IMG/VR virus record: IMGVR_UViG_3300020193_000086
Location: 1-31,699 of that record
Strand: one strand, 5' to 3'
From: a virus
Length of the DNA: 31,699 nucleotides
The notes beneath the pieces were generated by a model, which worked only from the letters and a program-made list of their open reading frames with translations, was not told the DNA's origin and searched no databases. Below are positions 1-29,226 of this stretch, in pieces. Numbering within the stretch: the first letter of the stretch is position 1; every line of letters begins with the position of its first letter. Position numbers and translations under genes: made by a program.

Positions 1-523
1 CACGGACTCTCTTGGTGCGCTTCGCGGGGACAATCATCGGGTCACGCTGGACGGTGCCGAACACTGCGTTGGCGTTGTTGCCAAGAGTGCCAGTCGGGAG
101 CGTGGTGTACACGTCCTTGACTTGGATGGTGCCGTTGTACTGGAATGGAGCGGACATGTTGGCGCCCGCGCGTCCATTCTGCAACGACTTGAACTCTGGC
201 GACGCTAGGAACGCTTCGCCGATGCTGCGCGTCTCGACCTGGGGGAACTGCTGGGTCTGTGCGGCAGCCACTTGGGCAACCGACTCCTTGGCCTGCGCGC
301 CACCCCACGACTCGACTTCGCTCATTGCCTCAAGGCCGCTGATGAGCGACTTGATTTCGCGAATGTCGGTCATGTTCTTGTCGAACGCATTCTTTTGTGC
401 CGAAGAGACGACAACGGTGCCGTCTTCGACGCGGAACGAATCGGCAATTGCCTTATTGTCCGCCATCTTTGAACGAAGTGCTGTCTGCAGTTCATTCAAT
501 CTACTGGTGTCTTGATTAGACAT
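1..523 (-). CDS. Major capsid protein, HK97 fold (N-terminal part, cut by window edge)
   Basis: I translated this frame directly from the minus strand; it reads open from ATG at 523 to the window edge, giving 174 residues without a stop. Residues 1-95 are polar and helical, as expected for a delta/scaffold domain of an HK97-type capsid protein. The segment ETRSIGEAFLASPEFKSL (residues 97-114) then resembles the end of that domain in related actinophage capsid proteins. The following stretch, with TTLPTGTLG, resembles the N-arm. The shell protein would assemble around the scaffold domain, which the prohead protease removes. Third codon positions are rich in G/C, unlike the giant genes upstream, which fits high expression. 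The start has only a weak purine run (AAGAAAG, 11 bases upstream). It is the last gene of the visible operon. The fold assignment rests on N-terminal similarity only, because the core lies outside the window. Confidence 0.82.
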   Translation of the reverse strand, partial: MSNQDTSRLNELQTALRSKMADNKAIADSFRVEDGTVVVSSAQKNAFDKNMTDIREIKSLISGLEAMSEVESWGGAQAKESVAQVAAAQTQQFPQVETRSIGEAFLASPEFKSLQNGRAGANMSAPFQYNGTIQVKDVYTTLPTGTLGNNANAVFGTVQRDPMIVPAKRTKRVR

Positions 524-667: not shown

Positions 668-3418
668 TTATTTTCGCGGGTATCTTCTTTGAAACCAAGC
701 AAGATTTTTGTCCCCACCACGAAAACCGCCATGTTGTTCTGACCACGACTTAAATTTTGGTTCATCGATTGCCATGAATACTCCGTCAACAATTTTTGCA
801 ATAACTCTTGGGGCGGCGCCAAGTGGTACGTCAGTGTCCCAAATGTACATATCTTGAATTTCCCCGCGTTGTAGGTGGTCGGTAAGCCAACCATACAGTT
901 GTCCGCCCTTGTTTCGAATTTGTTCAACTGGCAGTTGTCTATCGCCCTTTGCGTTTCTGGCTCGCACTCGCTGTTCGGCAACGCCATATGGGGTATAGGC
1001 AATATGAACAACCTTCTTGTAGGAGTTGTCTCTTGTCGTCTTGTAGTCAAACAATCTGTAGCCAGTGCCCTCAGTAACGATGTCCATCCCCTCTTTTGCG
1101 GCGTCATTTACTGCGTGTGTGGCTGAGTGGGCTGATTCCCTGTGCACGGCCATCGACCCAGAGCCACCGTTGTAGCCGACGATACCCATCTTTATAAAAT
1201 CTGGGTCTATTACTGCGGCTTCTGTTTCTGATGGCAATTGTCCTGTTTTCACAAGATGGTCTCGAAGGGTCGATTTACCCATCCCGCCAGGGCCAACAAC
1301 GTGATAGTGCGTTCTCTTGCCTGGGGGTTTGTTCCGTCTGTTTTGGGCAACACGGTCCAGAATGATTTTTGCCATTCTGCGCGCCCCAATATTGGTGTAT
1401 TCACCACTACTGGATGAACGAGCCCCACGCCCCTCTGGACTGAACCTTCTGTAAAACGACAGAAGTTTGTTCCAGTCACCACTCGAAAGTGCGCCTTGCA
1501 TTTTATATTTTTTCGCAATCCCGTATGGGACATTGAAAGACGGTTTTGAATTTCCCCAATCAATAAGGTGCTTCTTCCAGTTTTCTGGCCAATTTTCTGG
1601 CGGTGTTTTTTCAAGGTCGGAAAGACTCATTGACCTAGCACCCCTATTTTGCGGCGGTTCTGGAAGTGGTGGGGCTGGGTCGTCGACTTCCATTTCGGTT
1701 CCCTCGATGATTTCCAGTGTCCGCCCTCCAACATTTCCAGGTGTTGGTACTTCAAGTGACTCAATCACTTCAAGTGGTTTCGGCTCCGACGCCTTCTTTT
1801 CATCATCCGCTCTTCTAATGGAAGCAAGGTCTACGTCTCTTGTCTCGACGTCGACTGGCGTGTCCTTATTGCCAGTCATCAACAGATTTATTTCTTCGTC
1901 CGTCATTCCTATTTCTTTGAGTTTCTTAATAGTTCTTTCTAACGCTTCCCTTCTTCTGTCTATCTGTCTTATTGGTCTTCCCTGTTCGTCTCGTCGAATC
2001 ATGCCAGAGCCGCCATCCGTCTTGCTTCGGGCGCCACGCGAATTGTCTATTTCATTTTCATTTCTTTCAATCGCGCGTTTGACTATCTGTTGCGCCCTCT
2101 GCTTTGTCACACCAAGTTCATCGGCTATTGCCTGGAGAGTTGCGCCCCTTGAGCGCATATCCAAAACTTGTCTATCCCTATCATCGGGGGCCTTGGGACC
2201 ACGCATTCGTCTTTTACTGGGCTTGCTGTTCCTCATCCGCTCTCGGATGTCTGGTTCGAGCCACGCTGCGCCCCAAATCAATGCTGGGTGTAAATCAAGC
2301 GCTTGTATGGTCAATTTGTCGGCATCAATCGGGTCTATTGATGCGTCTGGTTCATACATTTTGTCAATTACTTCTTGCGTAACACCAAGCACCCGTGCCT
2401 GTTCGGCCCTATTTTTGCGTAAACGCAATCTGTCGTAATTGAGAAGTTCTGCTGCTTTGAGTGTTCCGCCCTTTTTTACTTTTGATGGTTTGAACCAAGT
2501 ATTTCTTACTGGTGATTCCCATGGCTCTGGTGGTTCCTCTGGCCTGCCAGCATTACGCTTGCTTACGCTGCGCGCTGCACGTTGGACGGCGTTTGGGTCG
2601 GGCATTTCGCGCCAAGTTCCGTCAAAAATTAATCCGTCTCTATCGTGGTCGCGACGCTCAAGTGGATTAAGGTTTCCAGCGATTTCAATGGCGCGTCTAA
2701 TTTTTCGTCCGATTGTGTTTGGTGTTGCCGCACGAGCAATTGCCCTGCCGATTCCCTTTGATTCATGCAATAATTCAAACAACGACTTATTTCTAATTTT
2801 TCTTCGCCTGTCCTCATTACGCATTTCGCGTCGGACAACAGTTCGAATCATTCTTCTTTCGGCTTCCTGTCTGTTTCTTCTCCCCAAAAATGTCGTTCCA
2901 GCAACACGCGAATAGTCGGTGTTATTGGTGCACGGCATCCAGACTGTTCTGCCTGTTGCAGACGGCATACGTCTTACACCAATACAGCCAAGCATCCTGC
3001 TTCTTTTTCGCGCCGATTCAATATCGGTGAAAACGTCTGGGTCGTTGTCTCGTGGCGAAACCCCTGGGATGAATGACTTTACGCCACCCGAATAAATGGT
3101 TGTCCCTATTGGTGCAGAAACAATGCCACCACCCTCAAGTGTTGCGAATCCACCCAGCGGTTTTGTTTCGCGAAGGTTTTCCCAGCCCCTTTTTCTTTGT
3201 TTTTTCCCTTTCATTTTTCTGATTTTTTGTCGGTCTTTTATTTGCTCGTAGGCTGTCTTCTTTCGTGGTTCGGCTTCACCAGAAAGTTTCAGCAATTCTT
3301 CGTGCGTTTCGCACGGCATCCACTTGCCATCATGTTTATGAGCCCCAGAACAGCCAACCCACTGCGCAGCGCGCAGGGCGAACATTCGCGTATTTACATC
3401 TGATTTGTCGTCAGCCAT
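668..3418 (-). CDS. Mosaic virion-cassette protein with two HTH segments and a C-terminal zeta-toxin-like kinase
   Basis: This 916-aa protein is clearly modular. Two Cys pairs with the pattern GCxG...WMPC lie at C23/C36 and C145/C163. A DxDxDGLIFDGTWREMPDP segment starts at D257 and is followed by AARS at 281-284. Residues about 325-395 look like an XRE-type HTH ending in HPALIWGAAW. Residues about 413-450 look like a sigma region-4-type HTH (LQAIADELGVTKQRAQQIV). GARS motifs start at 462, 593 and 665. The C-terminus, about 700-895, resembles zeta toxins (UDP-sugar kinases): Walker A GPGGMGKST at 709-717, IDPDFIK at 737-743, VHRESAH at 758-764, EGTG at 783-786, then an Arg-rich helix. Its ATG is 9 bases after the previous stop, without a strong ribosome site. 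The kinase fold is well supported; substrate and toxicity are inference. I see no separate epsilon-type antitoxin gene nearby. Confidence 0.85.
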   Translation of the reverse strand: MADDKSDVNTRMFALRAAQWVGCSGAHKHDGKWMPCETHEELLKLSGEAEPRKKTAYEQIKDRQKIRKMKGKKQRKRGWENLRETKPLGGFATLEGGGIVSAPIGTTIYSGGVKSFIPGVSPRDNDPDVFTDIESARKRSRMLGCIGVRRMPSATGRTVWMPCTNNTDYSRVAGTTFLGRRNRQEAERRMIRTVVRREMRNEDRRRKIRNKSLFELLHESKGIGRAIARAATPNTIGRKIRRAIEIAGNLNPLERRDHDRDGLIFDGTWREMPDPNAVQRAARSVSKRNAGRPEEPPEPWESPVRNTWFKPSKVKKGGTLKAAELLNYDRLRLRKNRAEQARVLGVTQEVIDKMYEPDASIDPIDADKLTIQALDLHPALIWGAAWLEPDIRERMRNSKPSKRRMRGPKAPDDRDRQVLDMRSRGATLQAIADELGVTKQRAQQIVKRAIERNENEIDNSRGARSKTDGGSGMIRRDEQGRPIRQIDRRREALERTIKKLKEIGMTDEEINLLMTGNKDTPVDVETRDVDLASIRRADDEKKASEPKPLEVIESLEVPTPGNVGGRTLEIIEGTEMEVDDPAPPLPEPPQNRGARSMSLSDLEKTPPENWPENWKKHLIDWGNSKPSFNVPYGIAKKYKMQGALSSGDWNKLLSFYRRFSPEGRGARSSSSGEYTNIGARRMAKIILDRVAQNRRNKPPGKRTHYHVVGPGGMGKSTLRDHLVKTGQLPSETEAAVIDPDFIKMGIVGYNGGSGSMAVHRESAHSATHAVNDAAKEGMDIVTEGTGYRLFDYKTTRDNSYKKVVHIAYTPYGVAEQRVRARNAKGDRQLPVEQIRNKGGQLYGWLTDHLQRGEIQDMYIWDTDVPLGAAPRVIAKIVDGVFMAIDEPKFKSWSEQHGGFRGGDKNLAWFQRRYPRK

Positions 3419-3827: not shown

Positions 3828-6800
3828 TTACTTACCCCAATTGGCGACTATGTCATCGCGTCGAGCAATGAGTGTATCAGCAAGCATCTTGGCACGTGCT
3901 GGGTCGCTGACTATGGCTGAAACCTGCTGTCTAATCATGTCATCAGTAATTACGGAAAGACCTAGTGCCTGCCGCTTGAGTTCTGCTTTATCCATGTTGG
4001 TAAAATCGACGTTCCCACGTTTTTGTAGAGAAGTCATTTCCCCAACCTTTGGGCCAAAAGCCATCGTGCCACCACTGCCCTTTTTGGCGCCCTGCGCTCT
4101 GTAGTCAAGGGAACCGCCGACATCAAGACGGACCGCACGTCCATTTTTGTCAATCTTAATATTGTCGTTTAGTGGTGCATCCCAGTTTGCCAACCACGCA
4201 TCGACAACAAAGTTCTGTCGTGCTGCATCATTGTCAGAACGACCACTTGGCATTGATGATTGAATCATTCTGGAAAGCATCACTGGCTCTCCACCCCTAA
4301 TACCCATCTGCAAATCTGCAACTGGTACACCAGCAAGTTCATAAAGTTTGCCCGCGAGAACTTCTGTTTCCATGCGTTCCAAAGCCTGTGCTGGTGATTC
4401 TCCAGCCTTCTTGAGTTTGGTGTAATACTTAGTGCCCATCGGGTCAGTGAGCATTGTTGCTGGGTTTGAGCCAACACTTGGTGGATTTGACTCGTTCCAA
4501 GTATCAACAGTCACTCCACTCTTTGGTGTCGCCGATACTGGGACTGAAGTAGGTGGTGTTGGTGTTGACGAATCACCATCAGCACCGCCGTCGCCGTCTG
4601 TCCCCCTACGTCTCCTTCCTCTTCTGGTCCGCACCATCCCACCAGCAGAGCCCTCCCGACTACGGTCTGGTCGCGTCTTCCAAGTCCTCCAGATGTTTCC
4701 TACTATGCTTCCGTCCGCTTTCTTTGTCATTCTGTCGGCTTCGCTTCTTGTTGTTGGGGCCAGGAACGCCACCAACATCGACCTGTTGTGCAACAGGAAT
4801 GGCGAATCTATAACACCTGGTGATGTACCGCTACCAGAATTGGTGTCGATGCCGTCCACACCGATAATCGGTGCAAAATAACCGATGTTACTGTCGCTAT
4901 TTGCGCTTTGCTTGGTGAAGTCGTCAAGATAATTGATTGCCGCAATAATCTTTCGTGTCTCTTCTGTCTTTTGGGGCGAGTCTGGTTGCTTGTCCAATTC
5001 CTCAAGTTTGTCAATCATTTGCTTGATTATTTGTCCGCTTCTTGAGGTTTCTTTGCTTAGGTCTGGAAGTCCCTTCTTTGCCATTTCGGCAAATTCGCCT
5101 GGTGTCATTTTTGAAATGACTTCGCGGCCACCAACAATTTTCTCTTGTTCGATAATCGCATTGGTTAGATTTCGCATTACCTGAATTTCTCTCTTCAATT
5201 CACTGGCATCAACAATGTCAGCACTTGGCGGTATGAGACCAATAATTGAGTGCCTATCGTTAGGACCGCCATCATAACCGCCCCACGCAGTAGTACCAGC
5301 GATTCTGAAATATTCACCCACCCCATAGGCCCTTGCTCCCTGACCAGGAATAAAACGACCAGGGCTGGTCAAGAACTGTTCAACGTAAGTTTCGCTGTTG
5401 ACCGTTTCGGCTCCAGTTCCGCGAATGATTGGTTGCCACCCAGCAGCAATGAGCGTTCTAATTTGGTCTTCGTCGACCAAGATTGGCTCATCGGAGAATC
5501 CGCTGTTTTCCCACAAGTCGTAGAGAAGTTTGTCGTAGTCTCTTTGGGAAAGTTTCTTTCTTTCTTTTGCCGCCGTCTTGTCGCCACTCAAAATCGCCAA
5601 CATGTTTATGTACTGTGGAGTTATCGTCACAATACCCTTATTATCAACTGCAATTGGCGTAAGTTCTTTCTTTCTGGCGGCCAAATCTCCCGATAGCGCA
5701 TCTGCATCTTTTGTCTTTGTGAATCTGGCAATCATTTTTCGCTTCAAAGCCTGGAATCGCAGTTTTCGTTGTGCTACCTGCAACTTCGGGTCAATAACTT
5801 GACCAGTCCTAAATGCGCCACGGTTCAATCGCCGACTTCGTGCTAGGGCCCGTGCTTCGCGACGTGGGTTGGTGCGCAAAATTCTCTTACCAGCGGCGAG
5901 TTTTACGCCTTTGCCAAGTTCCTGGTCTGATGCCACGTCTTTGGGCAACAATTTGTCGTATCCGCCTCCTGCCTGTGCGACGCTTGACGGATTTTTTGTG
6001 AAATTTGTATCTGGTTTTCCAACTTCCTTGGCGACCAACTTCTTTACTTCCGCACTAAGGTGTTCAAGCCGAGAGAAATCTTTATCCTCTTCCATGTTCA
6101 AAATTGTCAGCATATTGTCGAGCATTTTTTGAACTTTCAAAAATTCTGACCTTAATTTGAGGTTTCCGTCAGCATCGACAATTAATTCTCCAGTCGCCTT
6201 GTCTCTTTCAAACATTGACATACTGCCAGCGTTGACTGCATCGATTAGGCGAAGTGTCATTTCTTCAACATCCTCTCTGGTTATTGCAGAGTCTGCTGGT
6301 CTTGGAGCGTAGCGTCCGCCCTTGCCCTTGGCCCTTTGTCTGGCTGCTCGAATACTTTGTTTCTTGGCGCCACGACTCTGTGCTTCCCAATATTCCTCAA
6401 ATGTTTCTTTCAGTTTCGTGGTCAACTCTTCTTTTGCCTTGCCCAAAGCACCTTCAACTTTGGCTTTTTCTTCATCGGATAGCGAAGCAAAGTACTGACC
6501 GTCGCCATCGATGTCGTCTCTTCCCAGGCGACCTTCGAGTTCAGTGAAATTTAGCCGCCTATTTTCAAATCCAGCAGAAACAGGCGTTCTCGCCGCACTA
6601 CTTGCGCTACGTGCACCCCGTGGTGATGCGGCCCTAGAAACATTTGCTTTTGACATTCTTGTAGAAAGAGAATCGTCCACTGCCCGACGCGTGGACCTGC
6701 TTTGCGCACCACGCATGTCAGTTTGAATCGCCTTAATCAAGTCGAGAATTTCAACTCTCTGGTCTTCATCAAGTGGGAAGAGGGCGTCTGGGCCCTTCAT

Positions 6801-9800
6801 TTGGTCCAAAACTTGAAGCACCATTGCTGCTTCTTTATTGGTGATTTTTTCTCCAGCCTTAAGTTTCACGATGGAGGTAATTGCATCTTCTATATCACTA
6901 TCTGTTGGCACATAGTCTCTTGGAACCCAGTTCCATCGCGACAAACCGCTTCCTTCTCTACCAGTTTCCTCGGAGCGCGCACCTCTGTCTTTTGGGGCCA
7001 TCGGGGGAACTATAAACTTGCCCGAACCCCTCCCCTTCTTGATGATGTCTTCAAATTGCTTGTACAAATCAAGCAACATAACACGCTCATCTTCATCAAT
7101 CTCAACTTTTGCATCTGCGGCCATGAGCAGTTCCATTTGTGCAGCAACCAGCGTTGCCTCTTTTTCGGATACTGGTTCACCCCTACGCGCTTTGGCGATA
7201 ATCATGATTGCGTCATCAATGTCGTTGCCAAGGTCATTATTGGGGCCCGAACTAGACCGCGCACCACGACCACCGTCGTCATCGTCATCTGGTCGTTGAC
7301 CCGTACCGCCAAATATGTCGCGAAGCACATTTCTCATATAATCATCCAGCATCAAACTGAACGTCGCCCTGTCGTCACGGCCAACGTCAGGGTGCATAAG
7401 GATGTTTTTTACTGAGCCAAAGAGAAACTGCATGTCGTCGCTACTAAGTCTTTCGCCGAACGTAAGTGCCAATTGCATTCTGGAGAGTCTGGCCAAGTTT
7501 CTGTCGAGGTCATCCCCACTACCAAACATGTCGCCTGGATTCTGCATCAATCCGAAAACTGTTTGAGACAAAATCATTCTTCGTCGAGTAAGTTTGCCTT
7601 GTCTTATTTGTTGAGCAAAACGAGTGTCTACTTCGTAATCATCCATTGAGCGCGAAAGGTCTGATTCGGAGCGTGCGCCGCGCTCCCTGCTGGCTTTCCG
7701 CTTTTTTTCATCGGCCAACCATCGTCTAAACACCGCTTCTCTTTGCGACTCGGCTTCGTCAGGGCTTATTTCACCGTTGACAAGTTGACGTTGTATCCGC
7801 TCCAGGTCTTGCTGAAAGAAATTTCTATATTTTTGTTCTTCGCTGCGGCGTCGCGACTCGTCTACGGAACCACCAGGCCGCGGCTTGAATGGCGGAGGTT
7901 CAGTTGGCTCAATATCTTCTGGTTCCCTGTAGCGAGACCGTGATTGTGCGCCTCTTTCATTTTCAATTCTTTCTCGTCTGGCAATCTCGCGTTGTGTAAG
8001 ACGACGGTATTCTGCTTCGGAAACATTGCTTGGGCGATTTGCTTCTCTTTCTTCTGGCGTCATATCCGTCATGTCAATTTTTTCGGGGACGAAGTCTTGT
8101 TCGTTTCTTCTGTCTTCTTCTCTATCTAGGGCATTCAGTACGCCCTTAAGGAAATTTGCTTTGTTGTCGGCTTCCGTTCCATCTTGCAGGGCAAAATCCT
8201 CTTGCATATCCCTGACCATTGCATACAGCCACGGCTCATCGACATTTTGTGCCGCCCACCTTCGGGCAACATCATCAACACCGTCATCATATTCCCAATC
8301 TGGGTTGTCCCATCCTTCAAGTTGACCAAGGAGGTCGTTAGCCTTGTCGGTGGCTGCCTTCTGCATTTCTTTGTCCGAGAGTGGGCCCCTTGACCGTGCG
8401 CCCCTGTCCAAGGGGTCTGCCTGCTCAGTATCGGGTTTGCCTGGTGCGGCACGGCGTCTTCGCCCCATCTCCCGATTACGCGGGTCCGACACCCTCTGGA
8501 TTATGTCAAACAGTTCATCCATTGTCTTCTTTAGGGAAGAGTTTTCTCCAGAGTCATCCAGCAAATCTTTTATTGCTGAACTCATGTACAACAGTTCATT
8601 GAGACTTAAATCTGCGCCATCTCCATTAAAGGGGCCAGCGGCGAGGAGTTTTTGTTTTGCACCGTTTAATTCTCGTGCGGCTTCACTGTCCGTAATAGGC
8701 TCACCCATCAATTGCGAGCGACCAAGGTCGGAATACAAGTAGCGATTTATTGTCGCATCAAGTGCTGGGCCATACTTTGCCTTGAATCCCCTGGATGCCT
8801 TGTATTGTTTTATGCTTTCTGGATTGTCAAGGTCAATTTTCTTGAAAGCATATGCCGCCATTGCTTCGAGGACATTTGCCCTATGTGCGTAAACGCTGGC
8901 GCTAACCCCAGGGGCACCTCCACTTTCTAGTGCTCTTAGCGCAGAAGCGGCGTCTGCATCAAGACCACCGTTTATTGCCGCCAAATAATTTTCGAAAGGC
9001 TTTGTTTGTTCCACACTCATTCGCAGCCCCATGCGCTCAATGGTTTTTGCGATTGCCTCTTTTATCATCTTTCTTTGCTCGGGAACAGTTTGATTTTCGT
9101 TGAAGTCCATTGCCGACAATGTGGAAATAACACCAGCCGCGAGTTGACTGGTCTCGTTTGGTTGGTCTGCGTCAACACCGTCCATTCGCTGAGCGCGCAG
9201 CAATGCACCGTCAAAATCGTCGCCTTGCGCCATCCGTGCAAAGTCATCAACGGACGCAGCAAAGTCCAACTTGTCAAATCCGTCAGGAAGTTGCGAGCGG
9301 GAGGCGGCACTTCTATCTGCTCTCCTCAAACGCGAACGCTCTTCGCCCCTGGTACCCCTTGGTTTCCTTATCTTTCCTTCGCGCAAACGAATCATTGGTG
9401 CACGTGAAATTCTTGAATCAAGGGGGTCGCGAGACCTGGAAGCGGCAGACCGACCCTCAGTTCCCCTTGTGAGTCTACGTCTTTCTTCGCCTCTTGTTCC
9501 CTTCTGTTTTCTCAGGGGGCCAGACTCGCGCTTGTCCATTGGCGTTTTCGATTTGCGAACGCTGTCTTGCAAATTCCAAGTTCTGCTTGAACCGCGCCTT
9601 TCTCTGTCGCCACTACTTGAAGGAGCGCCCCTATCACGGTCTTTCTCTTTTCCGATGCTTTCCCATGACTTTAATTCATCAATCAAGTCATCAATGCGAC
9701 TGTCATTGGCGTATTTGCGCTTATTTTTTTCTTCGTTGAGTTTCGACATCACCAGTTTGTTTTCCGCTGGTGTCAGCCCGATGCCTCTTTTTGCCTTTTG

Positions 9801-11135
9801 GAGACCTTTTTCTAGTTCTGGGTTTTCATTTGGCTCAAGACTGGCGCTTATCTCATTGATAATGTCGCTATACGATGATGAACGACGCCCTTTCGGGTTC
9901 CCGATTTCCGACCGCGCGTTCCGTTCTCCTCCGCCACCTGGCTTTCGGTCACTGGCTTTTTCCAGTTGCCTAATCATTCTGTCGGCTGTTCCGTCAACAC
10001 TTGCGCGACGTGCTGTTTCATACGGAACACCAGCAAACTCTCCAACACGGCCATCTCTGTAGTAAACGACCATATCTCCGTTGTCGAGGTCGTACGTAAT
10101 TCGAGAGGCCAATTTCGAACCCCTCGTATCAATCAATCCGAGTCTCTTGCGTTTTAGTCTTGGACCGCTACCGTCATCTGTTCCGTCATATGGTGGAACG
10201 GAGGCCGCCATTGAACGCGCGCCTCGTCTTGCAGTTGACCTTGCCCCATCAGTAAATCGCGTTGGGTCTGGCATTTCGCGCCACGTTCCATCAAAAATCA
10301 TTCCGTCGTTGTCTATGTCGCGACGTGTTCTTGGGTCCATGTCTCCCGATATGAATCGTTGAGCAAGGCCGCGCGCTCGGCTTCTACCACGGTTTGGCGT
10401 GAGCGCTCTGCCAGCAGCCCCCAGGGACCTACCAATTGCATACCCAAGGCGACTCTTCGTAAAAACATCCACAATTTCTTTGGTTGATTGTCCAACGATG
10501 TCACGCTTAATCACCAAACCGCCAGAGTTTTGAATAATCTGCTTATTAATGCTGTGATTTATTCTTTGACCAAATTTTCTTTCTGCCCCAGCGGACATAT
10601 TGGCTTGAATAACGTGTCGAGCAGCATGCCGTGATGCTCTATTTGGTTTTGCGTTGAATGAATTCGTTTCATTATTAAACGCCAGTTGATGCGTTCTGAC
10701 CTTAAATGCAATCTCTCCTTGAATGACGGATTGTTTAAAGTTCCCAACCTTAAACTTCACCGCCACATTTTTTGCGCGAGGCTCGATTGGCAATGGCTTA
10801 TCAACCAACGACGGATATTTGGAAACATTGGGAATGGCTTGAGACTCAATCGCAAACGACAAGGTCTTGGTGTTTATTGTTGCCTGACCAGCCAGGGCAG
10901 CATCTGCTGAACTGAGAATAATGCTCTTCATTACCTCGTCTGACATACCAGAAAATTCACCAACAGAAACACCCATGGGAAGTTGGTCAAGAGATGCACC
11001 GTTTGCGTTGGCCCACTGCGCCCACTCGATGCCCTTATCTGACCATCCGTAGTACTTGACAGAGCCAGTTGACTTCACCACAACACCAAAGTTGACCCCA
11101 CGAACAACGTTTTTTAGGATTGCGTACTGTCTCAT
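3828..11135 (-). CDS. Giant modular virion-cassette protein with repeated helical units, ADP-ribosyltransferase-like and kinase-like domains
   Basis: This protein has 2435 residues. In order: a unique N-terminus; a basic Gly/Arg segment; DxDxDGMIFDGTWREMPDP with Asp 273, 275 and 277; GARS at 297 and 305; a KTSC-like domain at about 338-395; then a long array of helical units broken by NARS (406), GAPS (503), GARS (912), GAQS (1062), GARS (1153, 1291, 1385), GAQS (1476) and GARS (1507). Units at 1305-1368 and 1414-1476 are clear homologues. Residues about 1880-2140 resemble ADP-ribosyltransferases (IIRGTG with R1905, then YGVGEYF at 1937-1943). Residues 2215-2435 resemble a HipA/PI-kinase-like domain (K2240, DAWLANWD ending at D2319, N2325, LDVGG with D2338). 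The start overlaps the previous stop as ATGA with no ribosome site, implying translational coupling. Overall role is inferred: packaged multi-effector precursor. A tape measure is less likely. Confidence 0.85.
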   Translation of the reverse strand: MRQYAILKNVVRGVNFGVVVKSTGSVKYYGWSDKGIEWAQWANANGASLDQLPMGVSVGEFSGMSDEVMKSIILSSADAALAGQATINTKTLSFAIESQAIPNVSKYPSLVDKPLPIEPRAKNVAVKFKVGNFKQSVIQGEIAFKVRTHQLAFNNETNSFNAKPNRASRHAARHVIQANMSAGAERKFGQRINHSINKQIIQNSGGLVIKRDIVGQSTKEIVDVFTKSRLGYAIGRSLGAAGRALTPNRGRSRARGLAQRFISGDMDPRTRRDIDNDGMIFDGTWREMPDPTRFTDGARSTARRGARSMAASVPPYDGTDDGSGPRLKRKRLGLIDTRGSKLASRITYDLDNGDMVVYYRDGRVGEFAGVPYETARRASVDGTADRMIRQLEKASDRKPGGGGERNARSEIGNPKGRRSSSYSDIINEISASLEPNENPELEKGLQKAKRGIGLTPAENKLVMSKLNEEKNKRKYANDSRIDDLIDELKSWESIGKEKDRDRGAPSSSGDRERRGSSRTWNLQDSVRKSKTPMDKRESGPLRKQKGTRGEERRRLTRGTEGRSAASRSRDPLDSRISRAPMIRLREGKIRKPRGTRGEERSRLRRADRSAASRSQLPDGFDKLDFAASVDDFARMAQGDDFDGALLRAQRMDGVDADQPNETSQLAAGVISTLSAMDFNENQTVPEQRKMIKEAIAKTIERMGLRMSVEQTKPFENYLAAINGGLDADAASALRALESGGAPGVSASVYAHRANVLEAMAAYAFKKIDLDNPESIKQYKASRGFKAKYGPALDATINRYLYSDLGRSQLMGEPITDSEAARELNGAKQKLLAAGPFNGDGADLSLNELLYMSSAIKDLLDDSGENSSLKKTMDELFDIIQRVSDPRNREMGRRRRAAPGKPDTEQADPLDRGARSRGPLSDKEMQKAATDKANDLLGQLEGWDNPDWEYDDGVDDVARRWAAQNVDEPWLYAMVRDMQEDFALQDGTEADNKANFLKGVLNALDREEDRRNEQDFVPEKIDMTDMTPEEREANRPSNVSEAEYRRLTQREIARRERIENERGAQSRSRYREPEDIEPTEPPPFKPRPGGSVDESRRRSEEQKYRNFFQQDLERIQRQLVNGEISPDEAESQREAVFRRWLADEKKRKASRERGARSESDLSRSMDDYEVDTRFAQQIRQGKLTRRRMILSQTVFGLMQNPGDMFGSGDDLDRNLARLSRMQLALTFGERLSSDDMQFLFGSVKNILMHPDVGRDDRATFSLMLDDYMRNVLRDIFGGTGQRPDDDDDGGRGARSSSGPNNDLGNDIDDAIMIIAKARRGEPVSEKEATLVAAQMELLMAADAKVEIDEDERVMLLDLYKQFEDIIKKGRGSGKFIVPPMAPKDRGARSEETGREGSGLSRWNWVPRDYVPTDSDIEDAITSIVKLKAGEKITNKEAAMVLQVLDQMKGPDALFPLDEDQRVEILDLIKAIQTDMRGAQSRSTRRAVDDSLSTRMSKANVSRAASPRGARSASSAARTPVSAGFENRRLNFTELEGRLGRDDIDGDGQYFASLSDEEKAKVEGALGKAKEELTTKLKETFEEYWEAQSRGAKKQSIRAARQRAKGKGGRYAPRPADSAITREDVEEMTLRLIDAVNAGSMSMFERDKATGELIVDADGNLKLRSEFLKVQKMLDNMLTILNMEEDKDFSRLEHLSAEVKKLVAKEVGKPDTNFTKNPSSVAQAGGGYDKLLPKDVASDQELGKGVKLAAGKRILRTNPRREARALARSRRLNRGAFRTGQVIDPKLQVAQRKLRFQALKRKMIARFTKTKDADALSGDLAARKKELTPIAVDNKGIVTITPQYINMLAILSGDKTAAKERKKLSQRDYDKLLYDLWENSGFSDEPILVDEDQIRTLIAAGWQPIIRGTGAETVNSETYVEQFLTSPGRFIPGQGARAYGVGEYFRIAGTTAWGGYDGGPNDRHSIIGLIPPSADIVDASELKREIQVMRNLTNAIIEQEKIVGGREVISKMTPGEFAEMAKKGLPDLSKETSRSGQIIKQMIDKLEELDKQPDSPQKTEETRKIIAAINYLDDFTKQSANSDSNIGYFAPIIGVDGIDTNSGSGTSPGVIDSPFLLHNRSMLVAFLAPTTRSEADRMTKKADGSIVGNIWRTWKTRPDRSREGSAGGMVRTRRGRRRRGTDGDGGADGDSSTPTPPTSVPVSATPKSGVTVDTWNESNPPSVGSNPATMLTDPMGTKYYTKLKKAGESPAQALERMETEVLAGKLYELAGVPVADLQMGIRGGEPVMLSRMIQSSMPSGRSDNDAARQNFVVDAWLANWDAPLNDNIKIDKNGRAVRLDVGGSLDYRAQGAKKGSGGTMAFGPKVGEMTSLQKRGNVDFTNMDKAELKRQALGLSVITDDMIRQQVSAIVSDPARAKMLADTLIARRDDIVANWGK
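6708..6896 (-). repeat. Helical repeat unit, copy 2, ending in GAQS
   Basis: These bases encode residues 1414-1476 of the 2435-aa protein. The unit matches residues 1305-1368 (DI-DAI, GE, KEA, ED-R, LDL in register, about 109 residues apart). It is preceded by GARS at 1385 and followed by RGAQS at 1475-1479. The similarity is at protein level; codons differ, so the duplication is old. Confidence 0.7.
7032..7223 (-). repeat. Helical repeat unit, copy 1, between two GARS motifs
   Basis: These bases encode residues 1305-1368 of the 2435-aa protein, flanked by GARS at 1291 and 1385. The unit starts DIDDAIMIIAKARRGEP and is homologous to the next unit. A weaker relative (DLDRNLARLSRMQLALTFGE) lies between GARS 1153 and 1291. 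Another (LEKGLQKAKRGIGLTPAENK) lies between NARS 406 and GAPS 503. Confidence 0.7.
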
Positions 11136-14334: not shown

Positions 14335-17300
14335 TTATCTGTAGAGGTCGCTTACACGCTTTGGGGGACGGAACGTTTTTGGCTTTCGCCGTTTAAGCAG
14401 TCGACGAGCGAGTCTTCGACCAATTGTAACAGATTCGTCTTCGATTGCTTGCCTGACCACATTTCCATACGACGCTACGGATATTGGGGAATCAAAATAT
14501 TCATATGTTCCAACAATATTTCCCCGTATGTCAAAATAATAACCACCCTGAGCGGCTTCGATTAAGCCTTCTTTCCCACGCGGCACATTGTATTTACCGA
14601 CAACACTGCCGTCGGCACTATACAACCTTCCATTCTTGGCGTGGCCATCAACGTTCGGTAGCCAGAAGGCGTTTGGACCAAATTCGCTGTCATGGTCAAC
14701 ATCAATATCTCTAAGGTCAATACCTTTTGCTGGTCGGAAATTTGGATTTCCCCTATTCAGCATGGCATTTAGTCTTGCCGCTGATGCCCTTTCTTGAGCA
14801 GAAACTGTCTGATTTCTTGGCATATCGATTCCGCCAGCCCGAATCCAATTTTCTTCTATTCGTGTCATTTCATCAATGAGCAAATCACGCTCATATGCGC
14901 TGATTTGATAACCATTTTCAAGACGTTCCAGCATCGCAACCCGCGTAGATGGCTTGTCCATATTCATGCTGTCACTTAGTCGCTTGGCACGCTCTCTTCT
15001 TTCGCGTAAAAATTCTTTTACGTCTGGAGGCATGTCGGTAATTTTAAATGTTGTATCGTCTGGATATTCCCCGCGGCTGCTACTCATGGACCGTGCTCCT
15101 CTTTCATTTTTTTTCTTATTTTTATTTCGTTTGCGTTCAACGCCTTCAGCAAACAATTTCCCTAGAGGTGACAAATGGCGAGAATGCTTCACCTCTTCGC
15201 CGTCAACATTATATTTAGATGCCAATTCCATCATCTCTGTAGCCAAACCAGAACGCTGTCTATCTTCATCTACGGTTACATCCGAAATGGTCATATCATT
15301 CGGGTCGTTTAAACCAGCGGGGTCTGCATACCCCTTCTTGGCGAACAAAGCGCCAATATTCTTACCACTTTCGTCCGCAATCCAAATACTGACATCCTTT
15401 TTAGGCGGAACATCAGGGTTCGTGTAATCAATAGTGGAAACCACTCTTGCAGTGACTTTTCTTCCTTTTGAATCATTGAAAGACAGCCTTACTTCGCGTT
15501 GTTCTATGTTTTGTTTATTTCTCGGAGTTTTAATATCCGAAATGACAGTTTCTTTTTGAGGGATTGTCCTACTCATCGCGTAGGGCGGCAATTTTCTGTT
15601 TAGTGCAGTGCGCTGCAAAATTGGCTTAGGGCCGTCATCCCTCAACTCCTGCTGCATGCTTACGGCATCATGACCACGAACGACATTGTTGTGCCGATTT
15701 ATTTTTTCAGTAATCGTCCTCATGTACTCTTTTGTTTTTGCTTCATCAATCTCTTGCATCGCATCAACCCCTTTGTCTGCTATGCCGAATTCTTTCGCAA
15801 AAATAATTGCCAACGGAAGAATTTCTGAAATGTTTCCATCTATCACTGTCGCACTCATATGATGGTTGTTGTCAAGTACACCATCAAGCCCATCTGCTGC
15901 TGCCACCGCTCCGAATCGATGATGTCCATCGATTACGTAACCGTCGCTGGTTACAAAAATTGGTTTTTTGGATGGGTCGAACATTTTGTCTCGCGCTTCA
16001 TCAATTGCTTCCTGCGAGGCGCCCTGTCTTGTCAATTCCTCTACTTTGTCTAAGCCCTTTTTGTAACTATCAAACATTCCAGCAACTTGCTCACCCTTCA
16101 TCTCGCCCTGAGTAGACTTAAGTGTGCTTGTGGGAACTTTTTGTACCGTCTTCCCATCGGCTGTGGTCTTTAACTTGTAACCCCGTCGTCTTAGATATTC
16201 AACAAATTCGTCAGAAACATCGACTTCTTGGTCATTTAGAAACTTCGCAAGTTTTTTTTCTGCTTTTTCTATTTCTGACCGTGGGGCGCCAGCCTCCTTT
16301 AGTTGTTGTACCTTGCTCTCAAGTTCAGCAACCTGCGCATCAAACTTCTTTTGGGCCTGTGAGCCTGGAACTGGCCTTCCTGATGTTTGCGGCATCGCAT
16401 TCCTGGGGATGCCCTTGTTGCCAAGGCAAAACGCACTTGCGCCAATTTGGGTAACTTGACATAAGTCAAACACAAAACGTTTGAATTGCGCTTTGCTTAC
16501 TACACCATCCGTTACTTCAAGTATTTTTTCAATTTCTGCATCTGTTTTGCCCTCGTCCTTCAATTTCTTGCGCATTGCCGCAGCGGCGTCATTCATTTCC
16601 CTTAGTGATGCAACCATTTCGCCAATCTCCTGCATGAACATTGCCGACCCCTCCACGCTTGGCATGTCTACGTCGTAGCCGTTCAATAGTGCCTCGACAC
16701 CCTCTTCGACTGTATTTACAACCTTTTTGGGACGTACGGGTCTTTGGCCAATCGGTGTTGCCTCAACGTCTTTGATTCGCTTTTCCATAAAGGCGTTGAA
16801 TCTCGCTTCAGCGGCTTTTTTCCCAGCCTCAACCAGGTCCCTATCTGCTCTTCTCGATGCAACAAGCCCCATGATTTTTTCGCCGTACGCCTTTGCTTTT
16901 TCTGGGTCATTCGTTGCAACAGTTTTTTTCTTAATGCCCACCTCTTCGGTAAACTGATTTGCCAACTGGAGAATTCTCAAAATTGGAAGGTCAACTCTTT
17001 CAACGGGCATCTGATGAGTCCCTTGACTGCCACCGCGAAACTCTTTGCCAAGTGTCGCGGCCCAGCGATGATGTCCGTCAATTACGTAACCATCCCTTGA
17101 TACAAAAATTGCGTCCTTGTTTGGCTTCCACAATCTACGCCCAATCTTGTCTGCAACATCTTCTGCTGCCTTCAATTCTTGTCGCAGCGCCTTGGCCCCA
17201 TCAAGGTCACCCTTTCTAACCAAATCTCTTATTTTGTCTTCTAGTTTTGCAACCTTTTCCTTTGCTTCACCCAACTGCTTCTTGACTTGTTCCAATTCTT

Positions 17301-20300
17301 CGCCATCAAGGTCTTCGGCATTAAACATCCCGACGATTTTTTGTCCCTGCATATCGCGCTGCGATGCTTTAAGTTTGCTTGAATCGGCCAATTCGGGCTC
17401 ACCAATGGTGTATCCTTGCCCTTTGAGCCATTCCCTAAATTGGTCAGTCAGGTCTACTTCGGTTATTTTTTCAACCGCTTCGGCAATTTCCTCTTCCGAA
17501 AAACCAAGTTCGCGCATTTTTGTGGCTTTTTTGTTCTTCTTTTCCTGAAGCAACCTATACGCCAGTTTTCCTTCTTCTCCACTTTCTGGAACTTCGACTT
17601 CGCCTACTGCTTGAGGCATCATATACCTAGGAATTCCTTGATTGTCATCACAGAACACGCTCGTATTGGCAACATGTATATTGCATAAGTCAAAGACAAA
17701 GTTCTTTAATTCTTCTTTTGTGATTTCGCCATCTTTATACAACTGCTCAACTGTGGAAACTATTCCAGCAAACTCGTCTAGCAAAATATGTGCGCCCTCA
17801 ATGTTCGGCATATCAACTGCATAACCCTGAAGGGCATACTTGACTGCCTCCTGAATGGTCTTTGGTCTCATTGTTGGTGGTGGTGGCTGAAATGGGATAC
17901 CCAGTGCTTCGCGCCACGCACGACCCATGTCTTCGTCTTCGCCAGCAGAAATTACAGAATCGGCCACGTTGGATGAGGAGCGCGCGCCTCGCTCTGCCAT
18001 TGTTCCGCGTGAACGAAGTTCTTCAATTAAGCCGTCTGGGTCGTCTTTGGCGCCAGCGTCCCTGACTTTGCCATAGCCAACGTCATCGAAATCTACTTTT
18101 TTTCCATCCCTGAAAGTGACGGTAAGTCGTCTATCTTGCGGGTCGTACTCAATCTTGCTCGCCAGTTTCGAATTTTTGGGGTCCATTTCCATCGCCACGG
18201 CGGCGGCAGCACGGGCGGCTGGTCTACTTCGCTGCCCCTGGTCAATTTTGTGCACCGCTCTGCGTGCTGCAATTCTTTCGCGCAATGGCCGATATTGCTG
18301 GGTTTCCAGTGAATGCAACTTTTGACGAACGTCATTCAGATGTTGTTCTGCTGACCTTTGTGAGACAACCCGTGCAATCAGGGTTCCGTCACTTCTGGTC
18401 CCAATTATTTCTATTTCGCCTGGCGGGAGAATCAGGCCACCGAATTCTCCGCCCTCTGTGCCAGGGGTTTTATCTGGCAAACCCTTGAATCCTTCAGGCA
18501 CGGTAATAATCATTCTTCTGGTTGTGGTTGAAGCAGCACCATCGGCAACGCCAAGGTCTGTATCACTTTTTACAACGCCAACAAAATGATTATCGATTGC
18601 AAATCGCGTCCCAGAAATATCGCCCATATCGTCGTCAAATATTTCATTCGGCAATAAAATTTCAGCAGCAACACCTTCTGGCAAAACAGAAGAATCAATC
18701 AATTCGGTGAACGGAATGAATTGACTTTCGACAGCATCAATCAGTTGGTCTGGCGTCAACACCAGCATGTTTCGCCAATCCCCTGAGTCGGCGGAGTTCC
18801 ATCTTGCGCTTTGCCATTTTCCGCTAAGCACTTGCTTTTGTCTTGTGGTTGCTGCATCGATTACGCGCTCAGCAATTGACCTACCCCACCTAGAAACTTC
18901 CGCCCTGGTTCTCAATGCAACTGTTTCCACAAGTGCATCCGACATCAATGCGGCATCACGCGATTCCGAGCGAAGACCATCGAATGGGCGTCGAGCATCG
19001 CTGACAACTTGACTTGCTTGACGTTTTCTTCGTCCAAAAAATTTACGTGCTTCGTCTTTGAGAAAGTCTATTTGGCGCTCTACGCCTTCTCTTGTTTGTA
19101 CTTCAACAGAACCCAATCCTGGCACGTTAACTTCCTGCGTATTGAGGTCTGGTATATAAAACTCAGGTGACGGCATGTCTTCGTAACCCAAACCGATTGG
19201 GGAAAGTAGCATATCTATTTCTGGAGTTCTTTTAATTATCCCTGTTGCGACACCCGCGCCAATCTCTGCCTGCAACTCCATCAAGGCTATTGCGGTCGTT
19301 TTTCGTAACTCCTGGGCGACCTTCTCCCACGCCTCACCACGCATTGAGTGTCCAACACTTCCATACGCTGCTTCAATAATTCTCAGCGCTACTAGCGTCC
19401 CTCCATATTCTGGGGAGTTTTCCTTTCCTTCCATTATTAAAGCGTCAATTCTCCCACGCAAAGCGTTATATCGAGTGAGTCTTTCTTTTTCTGTTGCTCC
19501 GTCAAGCACGTGTCTCAACGCAACGGCCTGCCACATATTTGTTTGTGAATACGCCCCACCAGTGCCACGAGAAAACAAATCGTTTATTATTTTTGGCAAA
19601 TCATCAATCATCCCGCCAAGGAATTTTGGGTCGGAAAGCATGTCGGCGTAATTGACTATTTGTCCGTCCATCATTAGGCCACCCATTGGACTGCTGGTCC
19701 TAGGTATAACCAAGTCAGCAGCCAAATCCAACAGTTGTGAATTGTCCATATCTTTGAGGTTTTTGCCAGCGGGTGATTTTCTCAATTTCTCTAGATAGTT
19801 ATACACAGCAGTAACTTGTCGACCATGAATCATTTCGTGATGAAAAATGAGTTGAGCCCTTGCCGTTGTACCCGCGGCCTTTTCCATCACAAACTGTGGA
19901 TTATTTTCACCAACGTCCATTTGTTGTTTGACTCTTTTAAAATCATTAATTCCAGCAAGAACCTCTCTTGCTTCGCGCTCAACAGAGGCCCTATCGACGG
20001 CGCTCGCTATTTTCTGCAACTTTGCAACTTCGGTCCCAGCGCCTTGTGCTTGAAACAACGTAAATTCATCTGGAAATTCTGGTTCATCTCTCATTTGTGC
20101 TAAAAGAGCAATTGGATTTAAGATGATGCCCTGCTGAAAGTCCTCAATAGAGGGCGTCCCTCTATCCGAGACTACGAACATCGCATCGTAACCATAATCA
20201 GTGCTGCCGTTTTTGTGCTCTGCTCGCCAGTCAACCATCCTGACGAATCTTATTGATTGTTCAGCCACTTTGGGATTGTTTTCAAATTGATTTACTATTC

Positions 20301-27195: not shown

Positions 27196-29226
27196 CTAAA
27201 CTGCGAAATTCCAGGCTCGTCTTGCCTCGGTTATTGAAACATCGTTGACCGTTTTTGCCAAGATGTTGGAAAAGACGGCGACACAACTAGACCTAAAGGC
27301 GGTTCCCCTATGGTTTTCATCTTTAAAGGAAAGACTAGACACGTATGCGGAATTGAGTAGGTTGAATGTCTCGAAATTAATTTCTTGGAATCTCTGGATT
27401 TGCGCATTGAGATGCGCTACGACATCTGACCCATTTAAAGATTTTTCTGATATTTCAACAGAGTCTTGAATAATTGTTTGTAGCACTGGTCGTATGTCTT
27501 CATCAAATTGCCTATCCCACACTTCTGTATTGAAAATCGTGTCAATGTTTAATTGACCAGCGGATAGGGCTTTTACCGCATTTTTGCCCCTGATTTTTTC
27601 TAGAGTCACGCGCTGCTGACGCTCAATGGTTCTCTCGAATGCCCTATTGAGAATCGCGGTCCATCTCTGTAGTGAAACGCTGTCCTCTTTTGTTTCAATT
27701 TGAGAATTATGCAGCGACGCCTGTTGCCCTGGCTGAATCGCCGCATTCTCCATGGGCATGTCGGCGGCTGGCATTGGTAGTTGCTGCGGCATTTGGCCAC
27801 CAGGGGGCACCCCTTCCTGTGCAAGTGAGCCAGCCATGGTATTTGGGTCCAACGGACTTGCAACATTGCCTTGAGCGTCTGGCATTCCTGGGATTTGTTG
27901 TGCATTTGGGTCTCCTGGCATACCTGGCATACCTGGCATACCTGGTACACCAGGCATTCCTGGCATTGCGCCTTGCGGTTGTTGCTCCATCTTCTTTTCC
28001 GTATTCGCAATTGGTGTCAAGTTTGGATTCATCAATAGGGAGTCCGCAAGGTCACTCTCCACCTTCTTGCGGCTTGTTGCATCACGATATTCGTTTGTGC
28101 TAATTAATCCCATTTGCACTTCTTCCATAAAATAACGAGAGCGTTCCTGTTTGTACAAAATAAGAACTGGAACGCTTGAAATATCAAAGTCCACATAATT
28201 GACTTCGTCAAGTTCGTCAAAGCCACGTGCCAACAAATCAATATGTGGAAGCATCGTTTCATTCCAAAATACACGGTGTTCTTCTGCCGCGTTGCTAAAT
28301 GTTCTGCCAGAGGCATTTCCAATCACCGACTCTGGAACACCAAAAGCGGCAAGGATTTCTTCTTTTTGAATTTGTCGCATTTGGACGTAGGCAGCATCTC
28401 GCGGACTGGCCGAAGTATCCACATAATCAACACCATCGTCAGACGAAATCACTGTTGTATGTCCTGCTCGGCCAATATTTCCCCTAAATCTATTGCGTAA
28501 TTCATCTTTGTCGTCGTCGCCAATTTCGCCTTTGACAACAAGAATTCCACCAGGTCGACCATCGTTGATGAGGTAGTTGCGGTTGTACACCTTGGCTAGA
28601 TTTTCAATCTCTATTGCAATTCCAGCAGACTCCATTGGTGTTAGTGATAGGTAGGGGTCAAGCGGATGTGGTCGACGAATCCAAAGAACATCGTCTGGTT
28701 TTAGAATCACGGTCTGCCCAGTCGGCATTTTTATTTCATATCCAGCAACAAATTTTTTTGAATCTGGAATCGGTGCGGTGTGTTGCGGTGGCAAAAGGCT
28801 TAGTCCAATAAGTCTTCCATCTTTGCCTTTTATCTTTTCGATAAACGCACCACGTGAAGACATAAGTAACTGAGACGACAGTCTGTAGCGAAAGATAAAC
28901 GCGTTCTCGCCCTCATTTGCTTTTGTATTAAAAATCTCGATGAGTGGGGAGCGCAATGCTCTTCTTCCAGTAAGAACTTGACCGTCCCTGGAATTGTCCT
29001 TGCGAAGAATTATGGGAAGTCTTGCCTGATTGCCAGCAATTGCATCAATACACCTTTGAACCCATGTAATTTTTTGAAACCCTTCGCGATAAGCCCGCTC
29101 AATATCCCACATGTCGTGGTACGGCCTACCCACGCGGCCTGGGTCAAGGCTTATTGGTGCCCCAACACCAATCGCCTTGGCGGCAGCGTTGCCTAGCGAT
29201 TTGTTCTTATATGAGTTCCAAGCCAT
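27196..29226 (-). CDS. Portal protein (HK97-type) with collagen-like linker and helical C-terminal extension
   Basis: This 676-aa protein forms the ring at the capsid vertex through which DNA passes. Residues about 1-400 match the HK97-type portal family: WVQRCIDAIAGNQARLP near 55, then AYVQMRQIQKEEILAAFGVPESVIG, and the GRTFSNAAEEHRVFWNETMLP region. Around 415-440 lie six GxP triplets (GMPGVPGMPGMPGMPG), a collagen-like linker within a Pro/Gln/Met-rich tract to about 500. The last 170 residues are helical. They end in VSITEARRAWN, recalling the TExxRAxN signature of MuF-type head morphogenesis proteins, though the chain stops just after it. Family members are usually 400-500 aa, so the extension is notable. 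It follows the small membrane protein by 7 bases without a clear ribosome site, so coupling is likely. Confidence 0.93.
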   Translation of the reverse strand: MAWNSYKNKSLGNAAAKAIGVGAPISLDPGRVGRPYHDMWDIERAYREGFQKITWVQRCIDAIAGNQARLPIILRKDNSRDGQVLTGRRALRSPLIEIFNTKANEGENAFIFRYRLSSQLLMSSRGAFIEKIKGKDGRLIGLSLLPPQHTAPIPDSKKFVAGYEIKMPTGQTVILKPDDVLWIRRPHPLDPYLSLTPMESAGIAIEIENLAKVYNRNYLINDGRPGGILVVKGEIGDDDKDELRNRFRGNIGRAGHTTVISSDDGVDYVDTSASPRDAAYVQMRQIQKEEILAAFGVPESVIGNASGRTFSNAAEEHRVFWNETMLPHIDLLARGFDELDEVNYVDFDISSVPVLILYKQERSRYFMEEVQMGLISTNEYRDATSRKKVESDLADSLLMNPNLTPIANTEKKMEQQPQGAMPGMPGVPGMPGMPGMPGDPNAQQIPGMPDAQGNVASPLDPNTMAGSLAQEGVPPGGQMPQQLPMPAADMPMENAAIQPGQQASLHNSQIETKEDSVSLQRWTAILNRAFERTIERQQRVTLEKIRGKNAVKALSAGQLNIDTIFNTEVWDRQFDEDIRPVLQTIIQDSVEISEKSLNGSDVVAHLNAQIQRFQEINFETFNLLNSAYVSSLSFKDENHRGTAFRSSCVAVFSNILAKTVNDVSITEARRAWNFAV
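27914..27967. repeat. Six tandem 9-bp units encoding the collagen-like linker of the portal
   Basis: Six units of the type CCTGGCATA, the first three identical, encode repeated Gly-Met/Val-Pro triplets. The 9-bp periodicity keeps the frame, so unit number can vary without breaking the portal. Confidence 0.85.

What the first reader, a model, noticed from the sequence alone, without database searches (positions are those of the whole stretch)
668..1320. Zeta-toxin-like kinase at the C-terminus of a virion-cassette protein
Residues 700-895 of the 916-aa protein carry the zeta-toxin order of motifs: GPGGMGKST, IDPDFIK, VHRESAH, EGTG and an Arg-rich helix. Zeta toxins phosphorylate UDP-N-acetylglucosamine and block wall synthesis. 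GARS at 665 would release a domain of about 249 residues. I see no separate epsilon-type antitoxin gene, so the protein may be held inactive in the precursor, or the host target may be met only after injection.
Basis: partly seen in the sequence, partly recalled or inferred. Interest (0 to 1): 0.75.

Follow-up and report, generated by a model that had tools for sequence, protein, structure and literature searches.

The report
Zeta-type kinase carried by phage head

Summary
Residues 667-916 of the 916-aa ORF (window 671-1420, minus strand) fold as a zeta-toxin-family P-loop kinase: AlphaFold pLDDT 90; best solved structures zeta (Z 15.2), PezT (14.8) and AvrRxo1 (13.7), ahead of polynucleotide kinases (13.0) and adenylate kinases (11.3). 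A 23-sequence family profile finds zeta (1gvn) at E 2e-11. The residues essential in zeta (K46, D67, E116, R158, R171, plus T118) map to K715, D740, E783, R821, R827, T785. The uridine-side UNAG contacts E100 and T128 are not kept, and distant relatives lose E783, so UDP-GlcNAc as substrate is unsupported. In 31 of 32 related loci the gene lies directly before the major capsid gene. Other relatives have only the 197-243-aa DUF3721 carrier and no kinase, so the kinase is optional cargo. RGARS-type motifs bound it and recur 18 times in the cassette (0.46 expected), all three in this protein in linkers predicted disordered. Cleavage and injection are inferred. The distant homologue P-SS2 ORF030 (MuF + zeta) was found in purified virions with 96.5 peptides on average (PMC2784084). 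Zeta kinases fused to phage MuF proteins were already described (PMC5512222): a new variant of a known kind.

The parts
668..3418 (-). 916-aa head-cassette protein: DUF3721 carrier + modules + C-terminal zeta-type kinase; gene directly before the major capsid gene
   Evidence: synteny
671..1420 (-). zeta-toxin-type P-loop kinase domain, residues 667-916
   Evidence: Pfam, model pLDDT 90, fold search, profile
1268..1294 (-). Walker A GPGGMGKST (709-717), K715 = zeta K46
1190..1207 (-). DPDFIK (738-743); D740 = zeta catalytic base D67; invariant in relatives
1055..1072 (-). EGTGYR (783-788); E783 = zeta E116, T785 = zeta T118; the E is Q, T, M or D in distant relatives
938..970 (-). Lid arginines, residues 817-827; R821 = zeta R158, R827 = zeta R171
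1415..1429 (-). RGARS boundary motif (664-668) before the kinase, in a linker with pLDDT < 50 (659-675)
1631..1645 (-). RGARS motif at residues 592-596, in a low-confidence linker (542-596)
2024..2038 (-). RGARS motif at residues 461-465, in a low-confidence linker (455-476)
2924..3382 (-). DUF3721 carrier region (two copies, residues 13-39 and about 140-165); all that remains in cargo-less relatives
2594..2656 (-). RRDHDRDGLIFDGTWREMPDP, Ca-loop-like module shared with two other cassette proteins
2..523 (-). N-terminal 174 residues of the major capsid protein (cut by the window end), the next gene
   Evidence: homologue in L001
23379..27107 (-). Prohead serine protease (Peptidase_S78) with a long C-terminal extension carrying three RGARS motifs; candidate processing enzyme (inferred)
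3828..11135 (-). 2435-aa cassette protein with nine GA[RQ]S motifs
14335..21855 (-). 2506-aa cassette protein with three RGARS motifs and a GNAT-like domain
27196..29226 (-). Portal protein, other end of the cassette

Best explanation
The domain is a zeta-family small-molecule kinase with a complete phosphotransfer site, carried as optional cargo on a head-cassette protein (DUF3721 carrier) made together with the capsid. Most likely it is packaged in the head, separated from its carrier at the RGARS linker by the phage's prohead protease, enters the cell with the DNA, and there uses ATP to phosphorylate a hydroxyl of an abundant nucleotide-linked metabolite (a UDP-sugar or an NAD-like dinucleotide), pushing the host into arrest or blunting a response early in infection. 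Shown here: fold, family, catalytic residues, selection in relatives, synteny, optional presence, motif enrichment. Shown by others for a distant homologue: presence of the protein in virions. Inferred: packaging of this one, cleavage, injection, substrate, purpose.
For: Fold and profile place it with zeta/PezT/AvrRxo1 over nearly the whole domain, above PNK and AK. Essential zeta residues K46, D67, E116, T118, R158, R171 are all present in the window (literature PMC6356619 and PMC3062530). dN/dS 0.02-0.17 in related pairs. The gene precedes the MCP in 31 of 32 loci. Relatives with a 197-243-aa carrier only and no kinase in 8 contigs up to 172 kb; giant versions carry the kinase with pentapeptide repeats, or with DnaJ and NUDIX. 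RGARS-type boundary before the kinase, 18 GA[RQ]S in the cassette against 0.46 expected, all three in this protein in segments of pLDDT < 50. P-SS2 ORF030 = MuF + zeta, 96.5 peptides in purified virions. Phrappuccino gp57 has a C-terminal zeta two genes after its MCP.
Against: No proof that the window protein is packaged, cut or injected. P-SS2 peptides are counted for the whole ORF, not for its zeta part, and that ORF has a different carrier (MuF). The motif is no more frequent than in shuffled sequence in some relatives (L012, L033). About a third of this protein is predicted disordered, so three motifs in disorder is only modest support. No substrate is shown. E783 is lost in most distant relatives.
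Confidence: 0.6

Rival explanations
1. Classical UNAG kinase: the injected domain phosphorylates UDP-N-acetylglucosamine at 3'-OH, blocks MurA and weakens or stops the wall.
For: All residues essential for zeta toxicity are present, including T118 that contacts the UNAG beta-phosphate; closest solved structure is zeta.
Against: E100 and T128 equivalents are T767 and D791; R120 is shifted by one; relatives lose E116 but stay under purifying selection.
Confidence: 0.3
2. NAD or nucleotide kinase acting on host metabolism or defence, as AvrRxo1 phosphorylates NAD: it would alter NAD or a nucleotide signal early in infection.
For: AvrRxo1 is among the best folds (Z 13.7) and its NCBIfam model matches 6 of 25 relatives (best 3e-5) against 2 for PezT (best 0.04); similar pattern of ATP site kept, UNAG site not.
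Against: The window domain itself did not match the AvrRxo1 model at E 0.1; its Z is lower than that of zeta; no NAD site was tested.
Confidence: 0.28
3. Polynucleotide end-healing kinase that repairs tRNA or DNA ends in the infected cell.
For: PNKs are the next folds (Z 13.0); weak PHROG polynucleotide kinase hit (E 0.087).
Against: PNK matches only residues 34-208 of the model (156 aligned) and lower; the profile hit to zeta is many orders better; no ligase or phosphatase match in the same protein.
Confidence: 0.1
4. It acts in the producing cell late in infection (for example stopping the wall or excluding superinfection) and is not delivered.
For: Gene lies among structural genes, which are usually expressed late; no antitoxin was recognised.
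Against: Fusion to a head-cassette carrier and the P-SS2 virion data favour packaging.
Confidence: 0.15
5. A structural domain without enzymatic role.
For: Loss of the E116 equivalent in relatives; location next to capsid genes.
Against: Walker A lysine, catalytic Asp and R821 are invariant in 23 rows; the whole domain is absent in relatives that have the same capsid gene.
Confidence: 0.07

Closest known systems
Zeta / PezT UNAG kinases (PF06414; PDB 1gvn, 3q8x, 2p5t)
   Same: Fold over ~199 residues, Walker A lysine, catalytic Asp, Glu and Thr of EGT, two lid Arg
   Different: 15% identity; E100 and T128 contacts absent; no epsilon-type antitoxin found; fused to a phage head-cassette carrier
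Zeta-like kinases in polyvalent proteins and MuF fusions of phages (Iyer et al. 2017, PMC5512222), e.g. cyanophage P-SS2 ORF030
   Same: Phage structural-region protein with a zeta-type kinase; P-SS2 ORF030 was found in virions (PMC2784084)
   Different: Carrier here is a DUF3721 protein before the MCP gene, not MuF; modules bounded by RGARS-type motifs; 24% identity to the P-SS2 domain
Mycobacterium phage Phrappuccino gp57
   Same: C-terminal zeta domain in a long protein two genes from the MCP
   Different: 26% identity; DGT in place of EGT; different N-terminal part
AvrRxo1 / XopAJ NAD kinase (named only, not fetched as a control)
   Same: Zeta fold, kept ATP site, UNAG contacts not kept, protein delivered into a target cell
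   Different: Delivered by a type III secretion system into plants; the window domain does not match its NCBIfam model
MuF polymorphic toxins (PMC5576092)
   Same: Toxin-like C-terminal domain on a phage head protein, thought to be injected
   Different: No MuF domain here; that paper does not mention zeta

Membership tests
Zeta toxin family (UNAG kinase of a toxin-antitoxin pair) | Zeta/PezT fold | tested here: met
   Model pLDDT 90; zeta Z 15.2 over 199 residues, PezT 14.8, PNK 13.0, AK 11.3
Zeta toxin family (UNAG kinase of a toxin-antitoxin pair) | Sequence profile | tested here: met
   Pfam 39 bits against 22.3, all 25 relatives match at E <= 0.1; profile to 1gvn E 2e-11. The Pfam cut-off itself is unspecific
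Zeta toxin family (UNAG kinase of a toxin-antitoxin pair) | Catalytic residues K46, D67, E116, R158, R171 (essential, PMC6356619) | tested here: met
   K715, D740, E783, R821, R827; E783 not kept in distant relatives
Zeta toxin family (UNAG kinase of a toxin-antitoxin pair) | UNAG contacts E100 and T128 (partly dispensable in zeta) | tested here: not met
   T767 and D791 by profile alignment; so it is filed as a zeta-fold kinase, not as a UNAG-kinase zeta toxin
Zeta toxin family (UNAG kinase of a toxin-antitoxin pair) | UNAG contact R120 | tested here: inconclusive
   EGTGR in zeta, EGTGYR here; shifted by one residue
Zeta toxin family (UNAG kinase of a toxin-antitoxin pair) | Cognate antitoxin gene | tested here: inconclusive
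   PF08998 found in none of 12 records, but the control was silent too
Zeta toxin family (UNAG kinase of a toxin-antitoxin pair) | Phosphorylates UNAG | not testable with these tools
   Needs an enzyme assay
Polyvalent / virion-delivered phage effector proteins | Multidomain protein encoded in the portal-capsid region with a conflict-type enzymatic domain | tested here: met
Polyvalent / virion-delivered phage effector proteins | Present in the virion and injected | not testable with these tools
   Only literature on the homologue P-SS2 ORF030
MuF polymorphic toxins | N-terminal MuF domain | tested here: not met
   No PF04233 match in the window protein; present in P-SS2 ORF030
Polynucleotide kinase | Best fold and profile with PNK | tested here: inconclusive
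   PNK folds rank below zeta and AvrRxo1 but share the kinase core

The most novel reading that the evidence does not exclude
A phage-carried branch of the zeta fold with a substrate other than UNAG (for example NAD or a nucleotide signal), delivered with the DNA by a cargo gene next to the capsid gene, gained and lost between related phages and cut free at a repeated RGARS-type linker by the prohead protease.
Probability: 0.25. Interest if true: 0.75.

Novelty: new variant of a known kind. Interest (0 to 1): 0.55.

Why it matters
It turns a general proposal (phages inject toxin-like enzymes) into a testable case: a defined 250-residue kinase with known active-site positions, relatives with and without it, and two cultured phages with the same domain, one of them with published virion proteomics in whose text the zeta domain is not mentioned. 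A delivered metabolite kinase without an antitoxin would be a clean way to see how phages change host metabolism in the first minutes.

Tried and rejected
Close relatives of the window domain in named phages: none. Relatives in the species genomes of genome contigs: none in two pattern-limited scans. Single-sequence search of the PDB: only P-loop noise; the family profile was needed. Pfam Zeta_toxin match as sole proof: rejected, since the model passes its cut-off in 13 of 14 control genomes. Epsilon antitoxin search: silent, also in controls. Similarity of the Gordonia phage protein before the MCP to this carrier: none; it is an S78 protease. ADP-ribosyltransferase reading of the C-terminus of the 2435-aa protein: no Pfam or PDB support. 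Defence-system models: nothing for this protein. Literature on zeta domains in virions beyond PMC5512222: none found in the held library.

Full report
Setting. The window is a 31,699-base virus record, classed linear, probably a fragment. On the minus strand it reads portal (27196-29226), prohead protease with a long extension (23379-27107), an acidic 457-aa protein, a 2506-aa protein, three smaller ones (155, 223, 692 aa), a 2435-aa protein, a 132-aa protein, the 916-aa protein of the finding (668-3418) and the first 174 residues of the major capsid protein. Among the nearest named phages by terminase and by capsid protein are Gordonia phages such as Chidieberevirus at 43-46% identity, which have an ADP-ribosyltransferase gene in the same region but gave no zeta match.

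The domain. Residues 667-916 match Pfam Zeta_toxin at 38-39 bits, cut-off 22.3. That model passes its cut-off in 13 of 14 ordinary control genomes, so I did not rest on it. Thirty-two related loci came from viral contigs, down to 33% identity. With the window domain and 24 of these as the alignment, AlphaFold gives pLDDT 90 and pTM 0.88. Foldseek gives the same leaders. A profile of 23 sequences, including two cultured phages, finds zeta at E 2e-11, with Pnkp1 next among true kinases at 3e-4. The family assignment is therefore firm.

Active site. The alignment, whose chain numbering puts the Walker lysine of 1gvn at 46 as in the literature, maps K46 to K715, D67 to D740 (the second Asp of DPD), E116 to E783, T118 to T785, R158 to R821 and R171 to R827. 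K46, D67, E116, R158 and R171 are essential in zeta (PMC6356619); the T118 equivalent is needed in PezT (PMC3062530). E100 and T128, which touch the UDP ribose and the uracil, map to T767 and D791; both are partly dispensable in zeta. So the phosphotransfer machinery is kept and the UNAG-specific contacts are only partly kept. AvrRxo1 shows a similar pattern and phosphorylates NAD instead (PMC5087710; PMC5491322). Across 30 rows, E is found in the window's clade and its neighbours (10 rows); the others have Q, T or M, and the two cultured phages have D (L023 reads QGVG, L053 was not read). Pairs from several of these clades are under purifying selection, dN/dS 0.02-0.17, so the variants do not look decayed.

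Cargo. In 31 of 32 loci the major capsid gene follows directly, and the one exception is cut by the contig end; 29 of 32 show the same DUF3721 carrier, the other three being cut at the 5' side. A search with the carrier alone found relatives in which the protein before the capsid gene is only 197-243 aa, with DUF3721 as its only Pfam match in the two scanned, and eight such contigs, up to 172 kb, contain no match to the kinase profile. These contigs may be incomplete. Two others have giant versions of 2861 and at least 2986 aa, with pentapeptide repeats in one and NUDIX and DnaJ domains in the other, both with the zeta domain. The kinase thus looks like an optional module, not a part that the capsid needs.

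Boundary motif. GA[RQ]S occurs 18 times in the cassette proteins, 0.46 expected by shuffling: three in the protease, three in the 2506-aa, nine in the 2435-aa and three in this protein. Relatives show variants such as RGLRS, RGLAS, RGMAS, GGMRS before the kinase, enriched in most but not all. In the full-length model (mean pLDDT 61, so only local confidence is used) all three motifs of this protein lie in segments with pLDDT below 50, between folded modules; 316 of 916 residues are that low, so this is modest support. Since the S78 protease itself carries three copies, cleavage by it is a natural guess; in giant Salmonella phage SPN3US the prohead protease cuts several head proteins, itself included, after a short motif (PMC10052503). 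Nothing here shows cleavage. The part of the capsid protein in the window does not carry the motif.

Virion evidence. Searching named phages with a distant relative found cyanophage P-SS2 and Mycobacterium phages Phrappuccino and Settecandela. P-SS2 ORF030 has MuF (35.6 bits) and Zeta_toxin (77.8 bits) domains. Its virion proteomics list this ORF, labelled major capsid protein, with 96.5 peptides on average (PMC2784084); the word zeta does not occur in the paper. A zeta-kinase protein is thus present in purified particles of a cultured phage, although the count does not say which part of it. Phrappuccino gp57 has a C-terminal zeta domain two genes after its capsid gene.

Known before. Iyer et al. 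[quoted passage not shown] MuF toxins are the related concept in temperate phages (PMC5576092). New here, as far as I could check, are the non-MuF carrier next to the capsid gene, the presence and absence across relatives, the repeated boundary motif, and the residue-level argument that UNAG should not be assumed.

Verdict. Zeta-family kinase: very likely. Virion cargo: likely. Release at RGARS: plausible. UNAG as substrate: open, about one in three.

Noticed in passing
L035:5649-10148 (NC_013021.1 17648-22147): Cyanophage P-SS2 ORF030, labelled major capsid protein or head morphogenesis, is MuF + zeta kinase and has 96.5 peptides on average in purified virions.
   Followed up: yes
L036:4601-7867 (NC_054727.1 38600-41866): Phrappuccino gp57 (1088 aa, hypothetical) ends in a Zeta_toxin domain, two genes after the major head protein.
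   Followed up: partly
window 668-27107: RGARS/RGAQS-type motif 18 times in four cassette proteins, including this one and the prohead protease extension.
   Followed up: partly
window 23379-27107, 3828-11135, 668-3418: The same Ca-loop-like module (RRDxDxDGxIFDGTWREMPDP) occurs once in each of three cassette proteins.
   Followed up: partly
L053:7953-16538 and L067:7923-16882: Giant versions of the carrier protein with the zeta domain, one with pentapeptide repeats, the other with NUDIX and DnaJ domains.
   Followed up: partly
L051-L064: Cargo-less relatives: a short DUF3721 protein directly before the major capsid gene.
   Followed up: yes
window 14335-21855: 2506-aa protein with a GNAT-like domain (Pfam 21.1 bits in a fragment), a weak DarA_N match, and by eye an HExxH and two DGHHR (ParB-like) motifs.
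   Followed up: no
window 2063-2185: Sigma-70 region 4-like HTH (residues 412-452) inside the 916-aa head-cassette protein.
   Followed up: no
fold search, A0A6J5LTH6: An uncultured phage protein named anti-CBASS Acb1 (1134 aa) holds a region with the same fold (TM 0.61, 27% identity).
   Followed up: no
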